This document shows positions 1 to 11,346 of a stretch of 37,154 bases of DNA, one piece after another (positions within the stretch are counted from its first letter, which is position 1; each line of letters opens with the position of its first letter). The translations under genes were made by a program, and so were the position numbers. This DNA comes from Clostridiales bacterium (GTDB taxonomy: Bacteria > Bacillota > Clostridia > Oscillospirales > Acutalibacteraceae). The notes under the pieces were generated by a model. It was given only the letters and a program-made list of their open reading frames with translations. It did no database searches and was not told the DNA's origin. The stretch is taken from assembly GCA_022793315.1 (NCBI GenBank), contig JAAWCO010000035.1:1-37154 (forward strand), read 5' to 3'.

Positions 1-360
1 GAGGGAAAATGCCTGAGGCATTTTCAGGGCCACAGCCATCAAGCGTTAGGTGAGCATAAGCGTTGGGCTGTGGTGATGACAAGATGAAGAGAGGGAAAAT
101 GCCTGAGGCATTTTCAGGGCCACAGCCATCAAGCGTTAGGTGAGCATAAGCGTTGGGCTGTGGTCAAGACAAGATGAGGTTCGGGAAAATGCCTGGGGCA
201 TTTTCAGGGCCACAGCCACCGGGCGTCACGTGAGCATAAGCGTTGGGCTGTGGTGATGACAAGATGAAGAGAGGGAAAATGCCTGAGGCATTTTCAGGGC
301 CACAGCCACCGGGCGTCACGTGAGCATAAGCGTTGGGCTGTGGTCATCGTATCAGGCTGG
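1..360. repeat. Tandem array of about four 90-bp units, each with two inverted repeats; probably continues left of the window
   Basis: GAGGGAAAATGCCTGAGGCATTTTCAGGGCCACAGCC...GGCTGTGG recurs at 1, 91, 181 (variant) and 271, with an exact 90-bp period. Each unit has GAAAATGCC-TGA/TGG-GGCATTTTC and CCACAGCC...GGCTGTGG stems. Confidence 0.95.
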
Positions 361-1351
361 CGCTTTCCTTTTTGAATACAGAGAGATAATCGAAGGCAAC
401 AATCGGCTCCAGCATCTCCCGCTCTCGCTGCAGCACCTTTTCCACCCACTGGCAGGCTGTCTCCAGGCAAACAGAACCGGTGGCGTGTGTCGGGCTCATG
501 TTATGCTTCATACAGAGCAGCAGCACCCGATTGGCGTCCTTTATCAGCTGTTCCCGGTCGGCCGCGGTAAAGGGATAGCCCGGAATTGCATAGCTTTCCA
601 TGATTTTCTCAATACGGAACATCATGAGCCTTTTATGCTCACAAAAGACGCATGGCCATCGTTCATCCACATGAGCGCCGGTATTTGCCATCAGATAAGG
701 AATAATCTGCCGGCAGGCCTCTGCGCCGAAGGCCTTCACAACCTCCTGATTGTGGTATTTGTGATCGTCCAGATCATAATCCTGTGAGTCCAGATAGCTT
801 TTCAGCTTCTTTTGAATACGGAGAAAACGGTAATCCACGCCGCGGGGATTGATGCGAAAGAATTGCAGCTGGCAGAGGAGGTCGGTCTGCAGCGAGCGGA
901 GAAATTCCGCATACCCCACCGTCCGGCTGTAGTAATGCTTGCCGTACATCATGGCGGAAAAGCCCTCCGGTCCGTAGCCGTACAGCAGAAGTCCCTCAAT
1001 ATGGGGCTCATCACCGTACCGCCGTGTGCCGGGGATTTCCGCACAGTTCACCCAGGCGGCGCAGTACCAGCCATCCTGCAGATAGCCACGGATGTGTGCC
1101 GCCGCGTCGGACAGCCGCCGGATCATATCCGGATAGAGGATGGACAGAGACAGGCAGGGCCAGTGGACATAAAGAGGCTCATGATAATCGTAAGGACAGG
1201 TATGAGAGGGGTCGTAGACCATCTGAATAAAGTGGTTGAGAATCCAATCGGTATAATATGGATTGGTCATCAGTACACTCAGCGGAAAGGCATAGTGAAG
1301 ATAAGACTGCATGGGTGGGGATGGTTCAATTGGCAGCTGAAATTCTTCCAT
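344..1351 (-). CDS. Uncharacterised 335-aa protein, last gene of the RiPP-like operon
   Basis: Long ORF whose start overlaps the stop of the upstream S8 gene at 1351. Cys/Trp/Tyr-rich; no family recognised with confidence. Confidence 0.8.
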   Translation of the reverse strand: MEEFQLPIEPSPPMQSYLHYAFPLSVLMTNPYYTDWILNHFIQMVYDPSHTCPYDYHEPLYVHWPCLSLSILYPDMIRRLSDAAAHIRGYLQDGWYCAAWVNCAEIPGTRRYGDEPHIEGLLLYGYGPEGFSAMMYGKHYYSRTVGYAEFLRSLQTDLLCQLQFFRINPRGVDYRFLRIQKKLKSYLDSQDYDLDDHKYHNQEVVKAFGAEACRQIIPYLMANTGAHVDERWPCVFCEHKRLMMFRIEKIMESYAIPGYPFTAADREQLIKDANRVLLLCMKHNMSPTHATGSVCLETACQWVEKVLQREREMLEPIVAFDYLSVFKKESASLIR

Positions 1352-3237
1352 TACACCGGGGCCCCTTTCTCTTCGCTGTCCGTTTCATCGGCAAAATAAT
1401 CAATCACGATGTCGGTCAGCGCCTCCATATCCTCCTCCTTTTCCAGACGCAGGACGGGCCGGTCAAACGCCGCCTCCCATTGGTGGCGCAGAGAGAGGAA
1501 CTCCTCCTCTGTCAGCGGGCGCTTTCCGCCCATCAGCCCCGACCGCGGAAAGCGCAGGGTCAGGGGAAAGACGACCAGCGCCGCCACTCGGCTGTCCACA
1601 GCGGATTCCAGAAAATGAATACAGCGCCGGAGATATGACTCCTCATCAAAGGGATTGACACACAGAAGGATTATATCCGGCTGAACGCCCATCAGAAAAT
1701 GTAGCTGATGCAGAGGATAATCGCCCAGATTCCCCGTATCGTGGGGGAGGATTTCCGACTGACACCCGGTCAGAATCAGCTCCGCACCGTCCTCCGACAG
1801 CTCGTTGATGGTCTGATTGAGCCAGGCGATGGCCGCATAGCTGCTGAGCTCTGAAGAGGAATCAAACCCGAAATGGAAGCACGCCTCCATACCGAAAAGC
1901 GGGGCGCTGGGCTCGGTGCCGATCTGCCCCAGCCGGTATCCGCGGCGGAGAAGCTTTTCCCGCAGCAGCAGCTGCAGAGTGAACTTTCCCTGACGGGAGC
2001 TGGTACCGAATACGGCGGCCACCGGAAGCCAGGGGCGATAGAGCTTGCCAAAATTGGGCGGTTTCAGGTCGGACAGCCGGAGCCGGGGGAAGTAAAAGCG
2101 GGGATTTTCCGCCCATTCCCCTGCGCCGCACGACTCCAGATCGTCAAAGGCATAGACATACTTGTCCGTTTCCGCCGCCTTTTGCAGCAGACGTGGGAGC
2201 AGAGTATCCTCCCTGATCAGCTGAGACAGCTCCCGTGTGTGTCCCAGTATCAGCGTATCGAAAGAGCTCCAGTCCAGCGCATCAATATCTCCGATGATCT
2301 GATCCTGTTCCGGCGGAATACCGGGCAGGAGGCGGGCGGTATGGGCGCCCACCCGGCCGGAAACCCGGAGGTCGCACACCCCCTCCACCGTGAAGGGGAG
2401 AAGCCGGGCATACCGCACCAGGCTGTGAATCTCCTTGTTAAAGGGGAAGAGAACGGCCCGGCGATAGCTGCCGACCGGCGGTTGGGGAGAGGGAGCGCCC
2501 GCCGCGGTGAAACGCCAGCGCGGGGGCGTTTCCCGGCAAAGGTGCTCATAAGCCTCCGCCGCGGTCACTCCGTCCCCACACATCCGCTGAGCCAGAAGAC
2601 CGCTGACATGGGCGCAGGCCAGACTGTTGCCTGAGTCAATAAAAACGTCGGGATTCACCCAGGCGACCCGCTGGGCGCGGCCGCAGGCGCACAAATCGAC
2701 CATGCCGTCCTCCACCCTTTCGTAATCGGTGCTTTTCAGGCATCGTTCCCCTGTGGTGACGCCGACAACACCCTCAAAGGCCGCAGGGTAGGTGACGGCG
2801 CCGCCGTTTTCAAAGGCGGAGACAATCAGCGTTCCCCGGCGGCGGAGACGGAGGCACTGCTCACGCAGCGCCTCCTTATGCTCGCTGACGCACAGGCCCA
2901 AGCTGAGATTGAGAATATCACAGGGGATATTCTCCTCCACATATTGCAGGGCCGCCAGCAGCAGCTCCTCATCAATCAGCGTCTCAAGGGAGTCAAACAG
3001 ACGGACGGCGAAAAGGCGAACCGACCGGCAGTGGGAAACCACGAGGCCCCCCATCGCGGTTCCATGACCCAGGCGGTCCTGATATTCCCCGGTCAGAAGG
3101 ATATCGCCCGCCGCGCTGCGCCCGATGGCAACACCGTCACAGAGCGCCTGCCGGAGATACGGATGTGAGGGATTGAGTCCCGAATCAATCAGGACCACCA
3201 GCGGTCCGCCGCCGGATGGGGGAGTGGGAAGAGACAT
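1351..3237 (-). CDS. S8 (subtilisin-like) serine protease fused to a C-terminal P-loop/DUF1611-like domain; candidate leader peptidase or peptide maturation protein
   Basis: Catalytic-type motifs VVLIDSGLN (Asp), GHGTAMGG (His) and GNSLACAHVSG (Ser). The C-terminal half has GTSSRQGKFT (P-loop-like). ATG at 3235-3237 follows AAGGAGGA. Confidence 0.85.
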   Translation of the reverse strand: MSLPTPPSGGGPLVVLIDSGLNPSHPYLRQALCDGVAIGRSAAGDILLTGEYQDRLGHGTAMGGLVVSHCRSVRLFAVRLFDSLETLIDEELLLAALQYVEENIPCDILNLSLGLCVSEHKEALREQCLRLRRRGTLIVSAFENGGAVTYPAAFEGVVGVTTGERCLKSTDYERVEDGMVDLCACGRAQRVAWVNPDVFIDSGNSLACAHVSGLLAQRMCGDGVTAAEAYEHLCRETPPRWRFTAAGAPSPQPPVGSYRRAVLFPFNKEIHSLVRYARLLPFTVEGVCDLRVSGRVGAHTARLLPGIPPEQDQIIGDIDALDWSSFDTLILGHTRELSQLIREDTLLPRLLQKAAETDKYVYAFDDLESCGAGEWAENPRFYFPRLRLSDLKPPNFGKLYRPWLPVAAVFGTSSRQGKFTLQLLLREKLLRRGYRLGQIGTEPSAPLFGMEACFHFGFDSSSELSSYAAIAWLNQTINELSEDGAELILTGCQSEILPHDTGNLGDYPLHQLHFLMGVQPDIILLCVNPFDEESYLRRCIHFLESAVDSRVAALVVFPLTLRFPRSGLMGGKRPLTEEEFLSLRHQWEAAFDRPVLRLEKEEDMEALTDIVIDYFADETDSEEKGAPV

Positions 3238-3255
3238 GGCCATTCCTCCTTTTTA

Positions 3256-3428: not shown

Positions 3429-5222
3429 TTAAGCATCGACATAATACTGGGCCTGCTTGTGATAGAGGTCGGCGTAGATGCCGTCCGCCGCCATCAGGCT
3501 GGAGTGAGTGCCGTACTCGGCCAGGCGGCCCTGGTCAAAGACGGCCACATGGTCGCAGAAACGGGAGGAGGACATGCGGTGGGAGATGTAGAGGGCCGTC
3601 TTGCGGTCGGACAGGTCGTTGAACTGGCGGTAAATCTCGTGCTCGGCCAGCGGGTCGAGGGCGGCGGTCGGTTCGTCCAGAATCACCACCGGCGCGTCCT
3701 TGTAGAAGGCCCGGGCGATGGCCAGCTTCTGCATTTCGCCGCCCGACAGCTCCACCCCGCCCTCAAAATCCTTGTGGAGCCAGGTGTCCATCCCGAGGGG
3801 GAGAGCCTGTACCCGGTCGTAAATATGGGCCTTCTTCAGGGCGGCGGTCACCCGCTCCTCATTATCCGGCTCGCCGAAGCCGATATTCTCCCGGATGGTG
3901 TTGGGGAAGAGGCGGAAGTCCTGAAAGACGGGGGAGAAGAGGCGCAGATATTCGTCATAGTCGTATTCCCGGATATCGACGCCGTCGACGAGGATCACCC
4001 CGTCGGTGGGATCGTAGAGACGCATCAGCAGCTTGACAAAGGTGGTCTTGCCCGCGCCGTTCTCTCCGATGATGGAGAACTTTTCCTCCGGCGCGATGGC
4101 GAGGCAGATGTCCTCCAGTGTGTTTTGCTGCTGGCCGGGGTAGCGGAAGGAGACGTGGCGGAACTCCAGCGTCGGGGGACGTCCGCCGGAGAGAAGGAGA
4201 CGGCGGTCCTCCCGCCGGGTTTCACGCATGGTCTCGGGCTTCTCCATAAAGGAGCGGAATTCGTCGCAGAGGATATTGGTCTCGGCAAGCTCGTTAAAAA
4301 TATCGAGGATGTCGGAGATGGTCTCATAAAACTGGTTGGCGGCGCCGATGTAGAGGGTGAAGGAGCCGATGGTGATATGACCGAGGCTGTATTTTAAGAG
4401 GAGGAAGAGGTAGATGACGGCGGTCTGGAGATTGTTGAGCAGGGAGCGGAGCCAGCCGATCCGGCGGTTATAGCGGGACTGATCGTCCTGAATGGTGAGG
4501 GTCTCGCCGACGGCACGGTCGTATTTGTCCAGCAGAAGGGAGCGCGCCTGATAGAGGCGGAGCTCCTTGCCGGTGGGGATATCGGCCATGCGCCCGGCGG
4601 CATAGTCGGAGTGACGGCGGGTTTTGTTGACAGTAATCTGATACTCGTGATTGCGCTTCATGGCGCGGTTGTTGAGCAGCAGGTTGACGGCCACCAGCGC
4701 GAGCAGGATCAGGATCATGGACAGATCGAGGGTCGCCACAATGGCGATCAGACAAAACAGCTTGATGACACTGGTAATAAAAGAATTAAAAATAATAATC
4801 GATTTGGTGGTCATCTGGAAAATGTTATCCAGACCATGCATAAACTGATTTTGCGACTCGGCCCCCTCCATCTCGCCAAAATCAAGCCGGATGGATTTTT
4901 GCACCATTTTTAAAACAAGGAGATAGTCGTTTTTCATGTTTTTCCCTACCTGATAGCCCTTCAGATAAGAGAGAGTATGATTGCAAAAAAAGGAAAGCAG
5001 GGCAAAGGCGCCGATAAGGACGAGGGGCGCCGATACAGCGCCTTCCTGAAGCAGGGCATCCAGGATCAGCTTGGGAAATACGATGGCCATCAGGGATTCA
5101 AAATCCCGGAAAAGGCCGAAAAGCAGATTGAGAAGGACGGTTTTGGGATTCAGACTCCACTGGAGGCGAATGAGATAGACGAGATTACGCAGAGTACCCT
5201 TCGGCAGCTTCGGCAGTGCCAT
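3429..5222 (-). CDS. ABC transporter, fused permease and ATPase (exporter type)
   Basis: N-terminal TM region; Walker A GENGAGKT, signature LSGGEMQKLAIARAF, Walker B VVILDEPTAALDP. No C39 peptidase domain. Confidence 0.93.
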   Translation of the reverse strand: MALPKLPKGTLRNLVYLIRLQWSLNPKTVLLNLLFGLFRDFESLMAIVFPKLILDALLQEGAVSAPLVLIGAFALLSFFCNHTLSYLKGYQVGKNMKNDYLLVLKMVQKSIRLDFGEMEGAESQNQFMHGLDNIFQMTTKSIIIFNSFITSVIKLFCLIAIVATLDLSMILILLALVAVNLLLNNRAMKRNHEYQITVNKTRRHSDYAAGRMADIPTGKELRLYQARSLLLDKYDRAVGETLTIQDDQSRYNRRIGWLRSLLNNLQTAVIYLFLLLKYSLGHITIGSFTLYIGAANQFYETISDILDIFNELAETNILCDEFRSFMEKPETMRETRREDRRLLLSGGRPPTLEFRHVSFRYPGQQQNTLEDICLAIAPEEKFSIIGENGAGKTTFVKLLMRLYDPTDGVILVDGVDIREYDYDEYLRLFSPVFQDFRLFPNTIRENIGFGEPDNEERVTAALKKAHIYDRVQALPLGMDTWLHKDFEGGVELSGGEMQKLAIARAFYKDAPVVILDEPTAALDPLAEHEIYRQFNDLSDRKTALYISHRMSSSRFCDHVAVFDQGRLAEYGTHSSLMAADGIYADLYHKQAQYYVDA

Positions 5223-7014
5223 CTTCTTCCCCTCCTTCCTGATAATTCTGCGCCTGGGTGTTGAACATGTCGGCGTACAGGCCCGGCTCCGCCATTAGGG
5301 CGTCGTGGGAGCCCTCCTGAGCCAGCCGGCCCTCCGCAAACACCACGATGCGGTCGGCGATGCGGCAGCTGGACAGCCGGTGGGAGATGAAGAGGATGGT
5401 TTTCTGCCCCGCGAGCCGGTTGACCCGGCGGTACAGCTCATCCTCCGACCGGGGGGAGAGGGCGGCGGTGGGTTCGTCCAGAATGAACACCGGCGCGTCC
5501 TTGTAAAAGGCGCGGGAAATGGCCAGCTTCTGCTGCTCGCCGCCCGACAGCTCCAGCCCCTCCTCATCGAAGAAGCGGGTCATGGGGGTGGCGGCGCCGC
5601 GCGGCAGGCGCGCCGCTCGTTCGGTCAGGCCCGCCTGCTCCAGGGCGCGGGCCAGCGGCTCCTCTTCCACTGTTTCGCTCATGGCCACATTTTCCCCCAG
5701 CGTATAGCTGAGAATGTGAAAATCCTGAAAGACGGTAGAAAAGAGGCGGGCGTATTCGCCGGGGGCGCAGGTCTCCCGGTCCTTCCCGTTGATCCGGATG
5801 ACGCCGCCGGTGGGGGGATAGAGACCCATCAGCAGCTTGACAAAGGTGGTCTTGCCCGCGCCGTTGGGACCGACGATGGAGAGACTTTCGTTTTCCCGGA
5901 TGGTCAGACAGAGGTCAGACAGGGTTTCCCGCTCCTGCCCGGGATAGTGGAAGGAGACATGGTCGAACTCAATGGTGAGGGGGGAGCGCTCCGGCAGGGG
6001 GTCACAGCCGGAGAAGCCGTCCTCCTGCTCCAGAAAGCGTTTGAGGGCCTCCATGTACAGGCTCTGGGTGAGGAGGGAGGAGAGGCCGGTGAGACCGGCG
6101 GAAAAAAGGGAAGAAAATTGGAGGATGGCGGAGATATACAGACTGAAATCGCCCACCGTCGCCTGCCCGCCCAGCAGCTGGCGGGACAGGTACCAGTAGA
6201 CGAGAAAAATCTGCCCGCCGTAAGCCAGCGCAGTGAAAAAGCTGGTTTTCATATTCAACAGGGCGATATCGGTATTGTGGCGGTCGATCCATTGTAGGCT
6301 GCGGCTGTAATTCCGGCTGCAAAAGGGTTCTAGATGAAACAGACGGGTTTCCTTCCCGTATTCGGGGAAAGCGGCATGATGAAGAATCGTATAGATTTTG
6401 CGGCTTTCCACTCGATTCGTCATATCATAGCGATATTGCCGCTGGTTCACGATCAGCGTCGCCGCGGCATTCACCAGCGATACGGCAAGAGCCAGCAGCA
6501 GCACCAGCGGGGAGAGGCGGGAGATAATCCCCAGCACCGAAAAGAGGGTGAGAAAATTGGTGATAAGCTGAAGGAGCAGGCCGGCGGTCTGGGGGATGCC
6601 GGTTTCCGCGATCCCCTTTTTGGCGGTCTCCAGGTCGTCGAGGATGGCGGAGTCCTCCAGCCGGACGAAGCGCAGGGAGAGGAGCTTTTCATATAGCTGC
6701 CGGTTGAGATACCGGTCGAAGGTACGGTTGCAGCGCTCGATCCGCTCGGAGAGCAGGCCTTGCAGCAGGGAGATGGCCAGCGCGGTCACGATCATGATTC
6801 CGGCATAGACAAACGCCTCCCGCAGGCGGAGGACCGGATACAGGGAATCCAGAATGTATTTGGGAAAGAGCAGGAGGTTGAGCGACGCCCCGGCGCCCAG
6901 CAGAGCGGAGAGGAGCAGACAGGCGAAATAGCCCCGGTCGACCCGCCAGGCGGTACGCATCAGGAAGGCGACGCAGGAACAGGTTCGCTTGACAGGTGCA
7001 GTGATTCGCTTCAT
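5185..7014 (-). CDS. ABC transporter, fused permease and ATPase (exporter type); probable heterodimer partner of the next gene
   Basis: Walker A GPNGAGKT, signature LSGGEQQKLAISRAF, VFILDEPTAALSP. Overlaps the next ORF by 38 nt. RBS GGGAGGAGGTC upstream of ATG. Confidence 0.93.
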   Translation of the reverse strand: MKRITAPVKRTCSCVAFLMRTAWRVDRGYFACLLLSALLGAGASLNLLLFPKYILDSLYPVLRLREAFVYAGIMIVTALAISLLQGLLSERIERCNRTFDRYLNRQLYEKLLSLRFVRLEDSAILDDLETAKKGIAETGIPQTAGLLLQLITNFLTLFSVLGIISRLSPLVLLLALAVSLVNAAATLIVNQRQYRYDMTNRVESRKIYTILHHAAFPEYGKETRLFHLEPFCSRNYSRSLQWIDRHNTDIALLNMKTSFFTALAYGGQIFLVYWYLSRQLLGGQATVGDFSLYISAILQFSSLFSAGLTGLSSLLTQSLYMEALKRFLEQEDGFSGCDPLPERSPLTIEFDHVSFHYPGQERETLSDLCLTIRENESLSIVGPNGAGKTTFVKLLMGLYPPTGGVIRINGKDRETCAPGEYARLFSTVFQDFHILSYTLGENVAMSETVEEEPLARALEQAGLTERAARLPRGAATPMTRFFDEEGLELSGGEQQKLAISRAFYKDAPVFILDEPTAALSPRSEDELYRRVNRLAGQKTILFISHRLSSCRIADRIVVFAEGRLAQEGSHDALMAEPGLYADMFNTQAQNYQEGGEEDGTAEAAEGYSA

Positions 7015-7053: not shown

Positions 7054-7091
7054 GTTCTGTATGGGGGAGATTTTTCTCCCCCATACAGAAC
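7054..7091 (-). terminator. Perfect 17-bp hairpin between the precursor gene and the ABC genes; terminator, attenuator or processing element
   Basis: GTTCTGTATGGGGGAGA-TTTT-TCTCCCCCATACAGAAC. On the minus strand it is followed by CCTTTTCTT. Confidence 0.75.
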
Positions 7092-7157: not shown

Positions 7158-7262
7158 TTAGATGCAAATGAACGCGCATTTGCCCTTGTCACATTCATTG
7201 TCTCCGTACAGCCGAATGTAGGTATAACCGGACTTTTTCACCTTTTTCAATGTCTTTTTCAC
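7158..7262 (-). CDS. Putative RiPP precursor peptide (34 aa): MKKTLKKVKKSGYTYIRLYGDNECDKGKCAFICI
   Basis: GTG-start ORF absent from the ORF track. RBS-like AAAAGGAGGGAGGGG lies 5 nt upstream. Lys-rich N-terminus, Cys-containing C-terminus (C-x4-C-x3-C-I), located inside the radical SAM/ABC/protease operon. Confidence 0.75.
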   Translation of the reverse strand: MKKTLKKVKKSGYTYIRLYGDNECDKGKCAFICI

Positions 7263-7308: not shown

Positions 7309-7581
7309 TCAGGCGGGAGTTTGATTGCCCTCCTCCTGAAGGGCAGCGATGGTTTCACATAAGTTTTCAAGGGAGGAAAAAAAGTCCATATTTACGGCAT
7401 CCGGAGGGAAAAGAATGCCGAAGGTTTCTTCCAGCGCCAGAATGGTGGACATGAACTGGATGGAGTCCTCAAAATAATCGCTCAGATCCTGATCCCCGGC
7501 CTCTGCATCCGTGATAAAGATGCCGTTTTCCTCCAGCACCGCCTGCACACGGGACAGGAGCGCTGTTTTTTCCGTTATCAT
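7309..7581 (-). CDS. Acyl-carrier-protein-like protein (peptide maturation-associated)
   Basis: 90 aa from MITEKTALL; ACP-like helix-2 motif FEDSIQFMSTILALEETFGI keeps the Asp-Ser of a phosphopantetheine site. RBS GAGG before ATG. Confidence 0.75.
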   Translation of the reverse strand: MITEKTALLSRVQAVLEENGIFITDAEAGDQDLSDYFEDSIQFMSTILALEETFGILFPPDAVNMDFFSSLENLCETIAALQEEGNQTPA

Positions 7582-7594
7582 ATCCGTTACCTCC

Positions 7595-8923
7595 TCAAAG
7601 TTGATCCGGATGCAGGGTCGCGGCGGCCAAAAGGAGCAGAGGATTAGCTTCGTGAACATATCCGCAGTTGTGATGCCTGCCAACTACCCCCGACTTGGGA
7701 CAGGTTGTCATCAGGCAGGGGCCGCTGAACGAACAGTCGTCGCAGGACGACAGACTCAGGCGGCATCCGGCCACCCACAGCGCCTCCTGACCCTCGTCGA
7801 TTTCGGCGGTTCCGTCGGGGAGCAGGCGGCCAATGGCATATTGAGAGCCCGAATCGTCGCATTTGGTGAGCTGTCCCTCCGTGCCGACGGTGTATTTGTT
7901 CTTAAAGATGGCCGGACAGGTCGCGCCTCCCGGCTCCAGATCGCCAAAATTTCCGCGGAACAAAATCCGGCCTGGAATCCGGGAGAGTCGACGGTACACC
8001 TCGTCCATTTCCTCCAGATGGAGCAGACTGTCTGACATCTCCTTCACCCGGTCGCCGCCCCAGTCGCCCGCCGGCCGGACAAACAGGGAAAAACGGGGAT
8101 CGCCCCCGAACTCTCCGTCGTAGAAGCGGTAGTATTCCTCGATCCGGTCGAGAATTTCTCGTGTGACGTTGGTGCGAATAGTGACCGACAGCATCGGATT
8201 CGGAACATGGTCCCGTATGTACCGCAGGTTGCCGATCACCCGGTCGAAGGTGGGCTTCCCGTTCGCCAGAAAGCGCTGGCGGTCGTGGGTGTCCTTCAGC
8301 CCGTCCACCGTGATGGTGTAGTACATCACCCGGCAGCGCAGCAGGGTCTCCATATTCTCCGGCGTGAGCAGATAGCCGTTGGAGGTGATGGAGCCGATAT
8401 AGGGCTTGTGCGCCCGGCGGCAGATCTCCATCACCTCGCGGGAGATGTGCTCGATGACCTCCATCTCCAGCAGCGGCTCGCCGCCGAACCAGCTGATGGT
8501 CACCCGGCTGTGCTGAGAGATGCGGCGGCGGACAAAGCGGATGAGCCGGTCCTGTATCTCTCGCGGCATGGGCTTTGGCTGAAAATCCAGCGCGCAGTAC
8601 TGGCAGCGGAAGTTGCACGCGCTGGTGGTGTGAACCACCAGATGCAGGGCGGGGTCCATGATCCGCTCCATATGCCGCAGCTCCCGCAGCGCCTTTTCGT
8701 CCCGCTCCGCCGGGATCAGATAGCCGCCGCGAACCAGCGCCTGAAAGTCGGGGTCGTCCTCCTCCTCCATCGGCTCCCGCCGGTTCAGCCAGCCGGTCAG
8801 CTTCTCCTTTTTTTCCTGTCCGGCGACCCGGATGCTGCCGGTCCCCTCCATGGAATTGTACAGGATCAGGTCGCCTGCCTCGTCTTCCACACACCGGTTG
8901 AACATGGATACTTTAACAGACAT
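7595..8923 (-). CDS. Radical SAM/SPASM peptide maturase
   Basis: CNFRCQYC (CxxxCxxC) motif, SWFGGEPLL, and a C-terminal Cys cluster (CPAIF...KCDDSG...CRLSLSSCDDCSFSGPC...CPKSG...C). RBS CAGGAGGAATTTT before ATG at 8921-8923. Confidence 0.92.
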   Translation of the reverse strand: MSVKVSMFNRCVEDEAGDLILYNSMEGTGSIRVAGQEKKEKLTGWLNRREPMEEEDDPDFQALVRGGYLIPAERDEKALRELRHMERIMDPALHLVVHTTSACNFRCQYCALDFQPKPMPREIQDRLIRFVRRRISQHSRVTISWFGGEPLLEMEVIEHISREVMEICRRAHKPYIGSITSNGYLLTPENMETLLRCRVMYYTITVDGLKDTHDRQRFLANGKPTFDRVIGNLRYIRDHVPNPMLSVTIRTNVTREILDRIEEYYRFYDGEFGGDPRFSLFVRPAGDWGGDRVKEMSDSLLHLEEMDEVYRRLSRIPGRILFRGNFGDLEPGGATCPAIFKNKYTVGTEGQLTKCDDSGSQYAIGRLLPDGTAEIDEGQEALWVAGCRLSLSSCDDCSFSGPCLMTTCPKSGVVGRHHNCGYVHEANPLLLLAAATLHPDQL

Positions 8924-8998: not shown

Positions 8999-9027
8999 AG
9001 TGTATCATACTCAAAGAATAATGTCAA
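8999..9027 (-). promoter_or_regulatory. Sigma-A-like promoter for the RiPP operon
   Basis: Minus strand TTGACA - 17 nt - TACACT, about 75 nt upstream of the radical SAM start codon. Confidence 0.6.
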
Positions 9028-11189: not shown

Positions 11190-11346
11190 ATGAGCGCCGC
11201 ATGCTTTGGGGCATACGGACGGATGGGTCCCGTGCGACGGTACGCCGTGAACCATGTCAGGCGGGGAACCGAGCAGCATTAAGCGGTCGAGGCCGTGCGC
11301 CGCGGGGAACCTGTCCGTTCGTATGCCCGAGGGTGTGCGGCGTTTT
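11190..11346 (+). ncRNA. ffs: Signal recognition particle RNA (4.5S/scRNA)
   Basis: Conserved domain IV-like GTGAACCATGTCAGGCGGGGAACCGAGCAGCATTAAGC, complementary ends (CGCCGCA.../...TGCGGCG), upstream TATAAT at 11174-11179, and location directly upstream of dnaX. Confidence 0.85.

What the first reader, a model, noticed from the sequence alone, without database searches (positions are those of the whole stretch)
7158..7262. Unannotated 34-aa precursor peptide with a GTG start
Reading the minus strand by hand gives MKKTLKKVKKSGYTYIRLYGDNECDKGKCAFICI* with a strong purine-rich RBS. It lies between the ACP-like and transporter genes, where no other minus-strand ORF is listed. The Lys-rich leader and C-terminal C-x4-C-x3-C-I core fit a sactipeptide or ranthipeptide-type substrate. 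The ORF track missed it because of its size and start codon.
Basis: partly seen in the sequence, partly recalled or inferred. Interest (0 to 1): 0.87.

Follow-up and report, generated by a model that had tools for sequence, protein, structure and literature searches.

The report
Hidden precursor of modified bacterial peptide
The tiny unannotated gene is real: it encodes the raw material for a chemically modified bacterial peptide, made by a widespread but little-studied enzyme set that pairs a radical SAM enzyme with a fatty-acid-type carrier protein and a protease, so it may make small fat-tagged or otherwise capped peptides.

Summary
Confirmed: window 7262-7158 (-) is a GTG-started 34-codon gene with a strong ribosome-binding site, inside a minus-strand operon: radical SAM/SPASM enzyme, acyl carrier protein (ACP), this peptide, two ABC exporters, a subtilisin protease fused to a TIGR04066/DUF1611 domain, and a 335-aa protein (U335). 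A profile built from 40 precursors of other genomes, with the window and its nearest relatives left out, finds only this ORF among 502 window ORFs (E 8e-5; next 1.7). The protease fusion, ACP and usually U335 recur in Clostridia, Paenibacillus, Treponema and Latescibacterota; leader-like peptides (MKKLxKK...VxLYxxE, then a variable, usually Cys-bearing core) are about 100 times denser just after the ACP gene than on the opposite strand. It is a RiPP precursor of a system related to, but outside the curated cut-offs of, the CLI_3235 bacteriocin system. The thioether class cannot be decided here. New points: U335 has the fold of carrier-protein-dependent BtrH/CcbD/CtaG/AziU3 enzymes; the ACP attachment Ser is invariant; and one Paenibacillus operon adds ketosynthases, reductases, a phosphopantetheinyl transferase and an acyl-AMP ligase-ACP fusion. 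An acyl-capping step is therefore plausible but unproven; the window's U335 lacks the usual Cys/His.

The parts
8999..9027 (-). sigma-A type promoter-like site TTGACA-17-TACACT with TG, ahead of the operon
   Evidence: consensus scan, 10 of 12 positions; a terminator-like hairpin 9224-9193 (-) separates it from the upstream yebC-like gene
7595..8923 (-). radical SAM/SPASM maturase, 442 aa, CX3CX2C at residues 103-110 and SPASM-type Cys pattern (CX13GX4C, CX2CX5CX4C, final C420)
   Evidence: Pfam PF04055 1.9e-18; best NCBIfam TIGR04463 162.6 bits against a cut-off of 525; motifs
7309..7581 (-). acyl carrier protein, 90 aa, phosphopantetheine Ser40 in an EDS-I motif
   Evidence: PF00550 4.4e-7; Ser invariant in 30 of 30 homologues
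7158..7262 (-). precursor peptide, 34 aa, GTG start; leader MKKTLKKVKKSGYTYIRLYGDNE, core about CDKGKCAFICI
7054..7091 (-). 17-bp hairpin with a 4-nt loop and T-rich tail between the precursor and the exporter genes; likely partial terminator or mRNA stabiliser
   Evidence: terminator scan; RNA fold z = -4.9, 0 of 200 shuffles as stable
5185..7014 (-). ABC exporter 1, 609 aa
   Evidence: PF00005 1.2e-26
3429..5222 (-). ABC exporter 2, 597 aa
   Evidence: PF00005 7.7e-29
1351..3243 (-). fusion protein, 630 aa: S8 subtilisin protease (triad D20/H60/S207) plus TIGR04066/DUF1611 (DgcN-like) P-loop domain
   Evidence: PF00082 6.5e-12, PF07755 6.6e-7; QhpE-like 110.6 bits, TIGR04066 69.7 bits; triad invariant; fold matches to DUF1611 structures and DgcN 7xrj
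344..1351 (-). U335, 335 aa, fold of BtrH/CcbD/CtaG/AziU3 carrier-protein-dependent enzymes
   Evidence: model pLDDT 92.6; Foldseek hits AziU3/U2, CtaG, CcbD; PF14399 in 14 of 38 homologues

Best explanation
The 34-aa gene encodes the precursor of a small RiPP. Shown by sequence: it sits in one operon with a radical SAM/SPASM maturase, an ACP, two ABC exporters, an S8 protease fused to a DgcN-like domain, and a BtrH-fold protein; its leader is conserved in homologous clusters and its core is not. Inferred: the maturase binds the Lys-rich, LYxxE-type leader and uses the core cysteines (C24, C29, C33) to build one to three thioether cross-links; the S8 domain then removes the leader near the conserved Glu, as QhpE does after QhpD; the ABC pair exports the product. 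More weakly inferred (about 0.4): the holo-ACP carries an acyl group that is put on the peptide by the BtrH-fold and/or DgcN-like proteins. The product is most likely a bacteriocin-like or signalling peptide.
For: Held-out profile test. Leader-grammar peptides at 1.67 per kb within 600 nt after the ACP gene, against 0.017 per kb on the opposite strand. The same-genus locus L009/L017 keeps the gene order and carries MKKLVKKTSEKKVRMVSLYANEGGTNKQCWGC at the same place. Of 46 S8-fusion loci with at least 7 kb held on each side, 43 carry an ACP, 38 the rSAM, 37 U335 and 44 an ABC gene. ACP attachment Ser invariant. U335 fold equals carrier-protein enzymes; DgcN-like domain. In L039 the precursor, ACP, protease fusion and rSAM share a run of genes with two ketosynthases, a ketoreductase, an enoyl-reductase, a PPTase and an AMP-ligase-ACP fusion. 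QhpD/QhpE/QhpF precedent (PMC7876137).
Against: No expression or mass data. The window's U335 lacks the Cys and His used by CcbD (Leu, and Glu-Gly, in those columns), so its acyltransferase role is doubtful. No acyl-loading enzyme lies in the window's operon. Only one of 80 loci shows the full acyl-building kit. The core is hypervariable, so cross-link positions cannot be predicted.
Confidence: 0.82

Rival explanations
1. It is an ordinary member of the known CLI_3235 bacteriocin system, with nothing beyond sequence divergence.
For: Same parts list (rSAM, TIGR04066, ACP, S8 protease, ABC, MKKL-type leader); 4 of 53 relatives touch TIGR04065, best 8.5e-4; 9 of 30 ACPs touch TIGR04069; SacP23 (PMC10731318) and Roseburia (PMC4573289) clusters have the same parts.
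Against: Window proteins score far under the curated cut-offs (rSAM against TIGR04068 97 of 500 bits; TIGR04066 70 of 200 bits). Protease and TIGR04066 domain are one protein here and separate genes in the canonical loci examined. The U335 profile finds nothing in the canonical TIGR04066 loci or fragments fetched, several of them short.
Confidence: 0.3
2. The peptide is a sactipeptide proper (S to C-alpha links).
For: SPASM maturase; nearest PDB sequence match is 5wgg (CteB), with SkfB second.
Against: 5wgg belongs to the SCIFF type, now classed as ranthipeptides (own knowledge); the rSAM belongs to no characterised family by cut-off. Link chemistry cannot be read from sequence.
Confidence: 0.25
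3. The ORF is a chance reading frame and the real precursor lies elsewhere.
For: Short ORF with a GTG start; an overlapping 33-aa ORF exists.
Against: Held-out profile, strong SD, exact synteny with L009/L017; no other window ORF scores.
Confidence: 0.03
4. The ACP and U335 do not acylate the peptide but act as a non-catalytic scaffold or feed another tailoring reaction on a carrier-bound group.
For: U335 lacks the CcbD-type Cys/His in the window and L017, and the Cys column varies across the family; AziU3, the best fold hit, is associated with aziridine formation rather than acyl transfer (own knowledge).
Against: ACP Ser invariant; acyl-building genes inside the L039 operon and PPTases in L039 and L041.
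Confidence: 0.35

Closest known systems
CLI_3235 / TIGR04065-04066-04068-04069 bacteriocin system (e.g. SacP23 of Paenibacillus polymyxa, PMC10731318)
   Same: rSAM/SPASM maturase, ACP-related protein, TIGR04066 protein, S8 protease, ABC exporter, short MKKL-leader Cys-rich precursor
   Different: Protease and TIGR04066 domain fused; an extra BtrH-fold protein; shorter cores; all curated NCBIfam cut-offs missed
QhpC-QhpD-QhpE-QhpF pathway (quinohemoprotein amine dehydrogenase; PMC7876137)
   Same: rSAM thioether formation, then cleavage of the leader by a cytoplasmic subtilisin-like protease, then ABC export
   Different: QhpC is an enzyme subunit, not a secreted small peptide; no ACP, DgcN-like or BtrH-fold partner (own knowledge of the operon)
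TIGR04463 and Clo7bot (TIGR04334) rSAM/Cys-rich peptide systems (NCBIfam)
   Same: Closest curated rSAM models (162.6 and 118.5 bits)
   Different: Far under cut-offs (525 and 600 bits); equivalence not supported
BtrH / CcbD / CtaG / AziU3 carrier-protein-dependent enzymes
   Same: U335 shares the fold (Foldseek E 1.7e-8 to 4e-4) and sits in one operon with an ACP
   Different: About 10% identity; the CcbD-type catalytic Cys/His are absent in the window copy
Selidamides (GNAT-acylated RiPPs; described in PMC9505594)
   Same: Precedent for fatty-acylated RiPPs
   Different: Selidamides use GNAT enzymes; none is seen here

Membership tests
RiPP precursor (general) | Small gene with ribosome-binding site inside a maturase operon, conserved in position | tested here: met
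RiPP precursor (general) | Conserved leader, variable core across homologous clusters | tested here: met
   leader consensus MKKLxKK...VxLYxxE; cores differ throughout
RiPP precursor (general) | Translated, modified and cleaved in the cell | not testable with these tools
   needs Ribo-seq or mass spectrometry
CLI_3235 bacteriocin system (NCBIfam) | Precursor matches TIGR04065 | tested here: not met
   no hit of the window peptide; 4 of 53 relatives hit weakly, best 8.5e-4
CLI_3235 bacteriocin system (NCBIfam) | rSAM matches TIGR04068 and maturation protein matches TIGR04066 over cut-off | tested here: not met
   97 of 500 bits and 70 of 200 bits
CLI_3235 bacteriocin system (NCBIfam) | ACP-related partner beside the rSAM | tested here: met
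   PF00550 4.4e-7; invariant Ser; but the window ACP itself does not match TIGR04069
Sactipeptide / ranthipeptide | rSAM with SPASM-type auxiliary cluster Cys motifs | tested here: met
   CX3CX2C, CX13GX4C, CX2CX5CX4C (canonical has CX3C), C420
Sactipeptide / ranthipeptide | Cys thioether to C-alpha (sacti) or C-beta/gamma (ranthi) | not testable with these tools
   needs MS/MS or NMR
BtrH/CcbD acyl/aminoacyltransferase family (U335) | Fold | tested here: met
   12 PDB chains with E at most 1e-3, all AziU3, CtaG or CcbD
BtrH/CcbD acyl/aminoacyltransferase family (U335) | Sequence match to PF14399 | tested here: inconclusive
   14 of 38 relatives match at E up to 0.1, best 7e-15; the window copy does not
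BtrH/CcbD acyl/aminoacyltransferase family (U335) | Catalytic Cys and His | tested here: not met
   window has Leu and Glu-Gly in those columns; His is kept in about 33 of 38 relatives, Cys in about 8; placement rests on a sequence alignment
S8 leader protease | Asp-His-Ser triad | tested here: met
   D20, H60, S207 invariant in five homologues

The most novel reading that the evidence does not exclude
The operon is one of a multi-phylum class of radical SAM RiPPs that are capped from an acyl carrier protein: a fused protease/DgcN-like protein frees the core and a BtrH-fold enzyme adds an acyl or aminoacyl group delivered by the holo-ACP, joining thioether RiPP chemistry to carrier-protein (fatty acid/NRPS-like) chemistry.
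Probability: 0.35. Interest if true: 0.82.

Novelty: new variant of a known kind. Interest (0 to 1): 0.6.

Why it matters
It supplies the missing substrate of an unannotated operon and shows that such precursors (25 to 60 aa, sometimes with a non-ATG start) follow a leader rule that can find them in dozens of genomes. It also gives a testable role for the unexplained ACP noted in CLI_3235-type clusters: fold and gene context point to carrier-borne acyl capping of a RiPP, which, if shown, would be a new route to ribosomal lipopeptides.

Tried and rejected
NCBIfam and Pfam give no real hit for the peptide itself; the single weak match (T4SS_Wip, 10.8 of 300 bits) is chance. Rfam finds no RNA element in the operon, only SRP RNA elsewhere. 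Chance ORF rejected by the held-out profile. A catalytic transglutaminase-like partner, present in L017 and 11 other loci with conserved Cys, His and Asp, was sought in the window and the window's genome and not found (genome about 78% complete). A Cys nucleophile in U335 was looked for and is absent in the window. A sequence search of U335 against the PDB gives nothing useful; only the fold search does. No paper was found on Clo7bot or on BtrH-type enzymes in RiPP clusters in the open library; the literature check is limited to open papers.

Full report
The minus strand at 7262-7158 reads GTG-led MKKTLKKVKKSGYTYIRLYGDNECDKGKCAFICI. It has AAGGAGG 11 nt and GGAGG 7 nt before the GTG, and an in-frame stop 11 codons upstream with no ATG, GTG or TTG between. 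It follows the ACP gene by 46 nt.

The operon. On the minus strand, in order: rSAM/SPASM (8923-7595), ACP (7581-7309), peptide, ABC1, ABC2, S8 protease fused to a TIGR04066/DUF1611 domain (3243-1351), and U335 (1351-344). Gaps run from -38 to 185 nt. A good promoter-like site (TTGACA-17-TACACT) lies at 9027-8999 behind a terminator-like hairpin of the upstream gene. A 17-bp hairpin at 7091-7054 separates the precursor from the exporters; I read it as a partial terminator or stabiliser that favours precursor mRNA (inference).

Relatives. In same-family genomes the rSAM is rare (7 of 300 at E 1e-40, the window's own included). All three genomes held of the genus carry the S8 fusion. The same-genus locus L009/L017 has the same order and a syntenic peptide MKKLVKKTSEKKVRMVSLYANEGGTNKQCWGC with a strong SD.

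A scan of GTDB genomes with the S8 fusion gave 80 loci (L016-L095) in Clostridia, Paenibacillus and Tumebacillus, Treponema, Latescibacterota, Gemmatimonadota and others. Of 46 with at least 7 kb held on each side of the protease, 43 have an ACP, 38 an rSAM, 37 a U335 homologue and 44 an ABC gene. Because the search was seeded with the fusion protein, these counts describe that clade and not all rSAM RiPPs.

Precursors. Small ORFs with an SD in these loci share MKKLxKK...VxLYxxE and then a variable, usually Cys-bearing core. A profile of 40 of them, without the window, L009, L017 and L021, finds only 7158-7262 among 502 window ORFs (E 8.4e-5; next 1.7). The training peptides were chosen with a leader rule, so the test is of generalisation to the held-out window, not of the rule itself. 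An independent control is the strand comparison: 34 rule-passing peptides in 20 kb of free sequence just after ACP genes (1.67 per kb) against 5 in 289 kb on the opposite strand (0.017 per kb); 31 of 67 loci pass this strict rule, and several more have a clear precursor elsewhere in the cluster. Two loci without the SPASM rSAM, L049 and L056, have precursors without core Cys; L056 carries a YcaO instead. This fits Cys being the rSAM substrate and the ACP/S8/U335 set being a shared chassis.

The ACP and U335. The ACP attachment Ser is invariant in 30 of 30. U335 has no Pfam or NCBIfam match itself, but 14 of 38 homologues match BtrH_N, best 7e-15, and one matches the BtrH-related acyltransferase DarH. 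Its model (pLDDT 92.6) matches AziU3/U2, CtaG and CcbD and, at E up to 1e-3, nothing else in the PDB. CcbD is a carrier-protein-dependent amide-forming enzyme with a Cys-His-Glu triad (PMC12945683). TIGR04066 here models as a DUF1611/DgcN-like protein; DgcN is described as an N-acetyltransferase in PDB entry 7xrj.

The strongest pointer to acyl chemistry is L039 (Paenibacillus polysaccharolyticus): ketosynthase, second ketosynthase, ketoreductase, PPTase, enoyl-reductase, precursor MKKLVKPKKVNNNVVLYGESNYKCS, ACP, S8 fusion, U335-like, rSAM, transglutaminase-like, BtrH_N, AMP-ligase-ACP and ABC genes run on one strand, with gaps of at most 32 nt from the second ketosynthase on and 460 nt after the first. 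L041 also carries a PPTase. Against it: the window operon has no loading enzyme, and its U335 has Leu and Glu-Gly where CcbD-like enzymes have Cys and His. I therefore hold the acyl-capping step at about 0.35 to 0.4.

Mechanism. Shown by sequence: gene, operon, conserved leader, near-canonical SPASM motifs, intact protease triad, ACP Ser. Inferred from the QhpD-QhpE-QhpF precedent (PMC7876137): cross-linking first, leader removal by the S8 domain second, export by the ABC pair third. Inferred only from context and fold: acyl capping from the ACP.

Known or new. CLI_3235-type clusters have been listed in silico in Roseburia (PMC4573289), and the SacP23 cluster from Paenibacillus gave antibacterial activity when expressed in B. 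subtilis (PMC10731318). The window's system has the same parts but misses every curated cut-off, fuses protease and TIGR04066, and adds a BtrH-fold protein that the profile does not find in the canonical TIGR04066 loci fetched (several of these are short). I file it as a new variant of a known kind.

Noticed in passing
window 1-344: A 90-bp tandem repeat (3.8 copies, 92% match), each unit with two hairpin-forming palindromes, directly after the 3' end of the operon and at the contig edge; apparently non-coding.
   Followed up: partly
window 11221-11319 (+): Bacterial small SRP RNA (Rfam RF00169, 67.6 bits).
   Followed up: no
L039 4405-20036: Paenibacillus operon joining a RiPP precursor and rSAM with ketosynthases, reductases, PPTase, AMP-ligase-ACP, transglutaminase-like and BtrH_N genes; a good candidate for an acylated RiPP.
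   Followed up: yes
L017 3688-4494 and 11 other loci: A recurrent transglutaminase-like family (PF01841) with conserved Cys, His and Asp in the same clusters; absent from the window.
   Followed up: partly
L056 17853-19568; L077 11811-13673: YcaO proteins in clusters with the S8-TIGR04066 fusion; in L056 no SPASM rSAM is found and the precursor lacks Cys.
   Followed up: partly
L054 9082-9849; L066, L067 and L069: A different precursor-like type in several goat-rumen Clostridia loci, e.g. MMFAKKERSNDVLLQGGYCYAGPDETGGKVRYTESYGNEC..., in up to three copies.
   Followed up: no
L094 16148-17901; L063 1732-3395: Arrays of about nine and six different precursors in one cluster (Ruminococcus and Treponema MAGs).
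   Followed up: no
L122 / L068 (G053 contig 13): An apparently decayed copy in a same-genus genome: protease fusion split into two frames and only a short rSAM remnant.
   Followed up: no
L082, L085, L095 (Latescibacterota, Gemmatimonadota): S8 fusion and U335 (with an ACP) without a SPASM rSAM in the stretch held; MKITLHKPQ-type peptides beside the first two.
   Followed up: no
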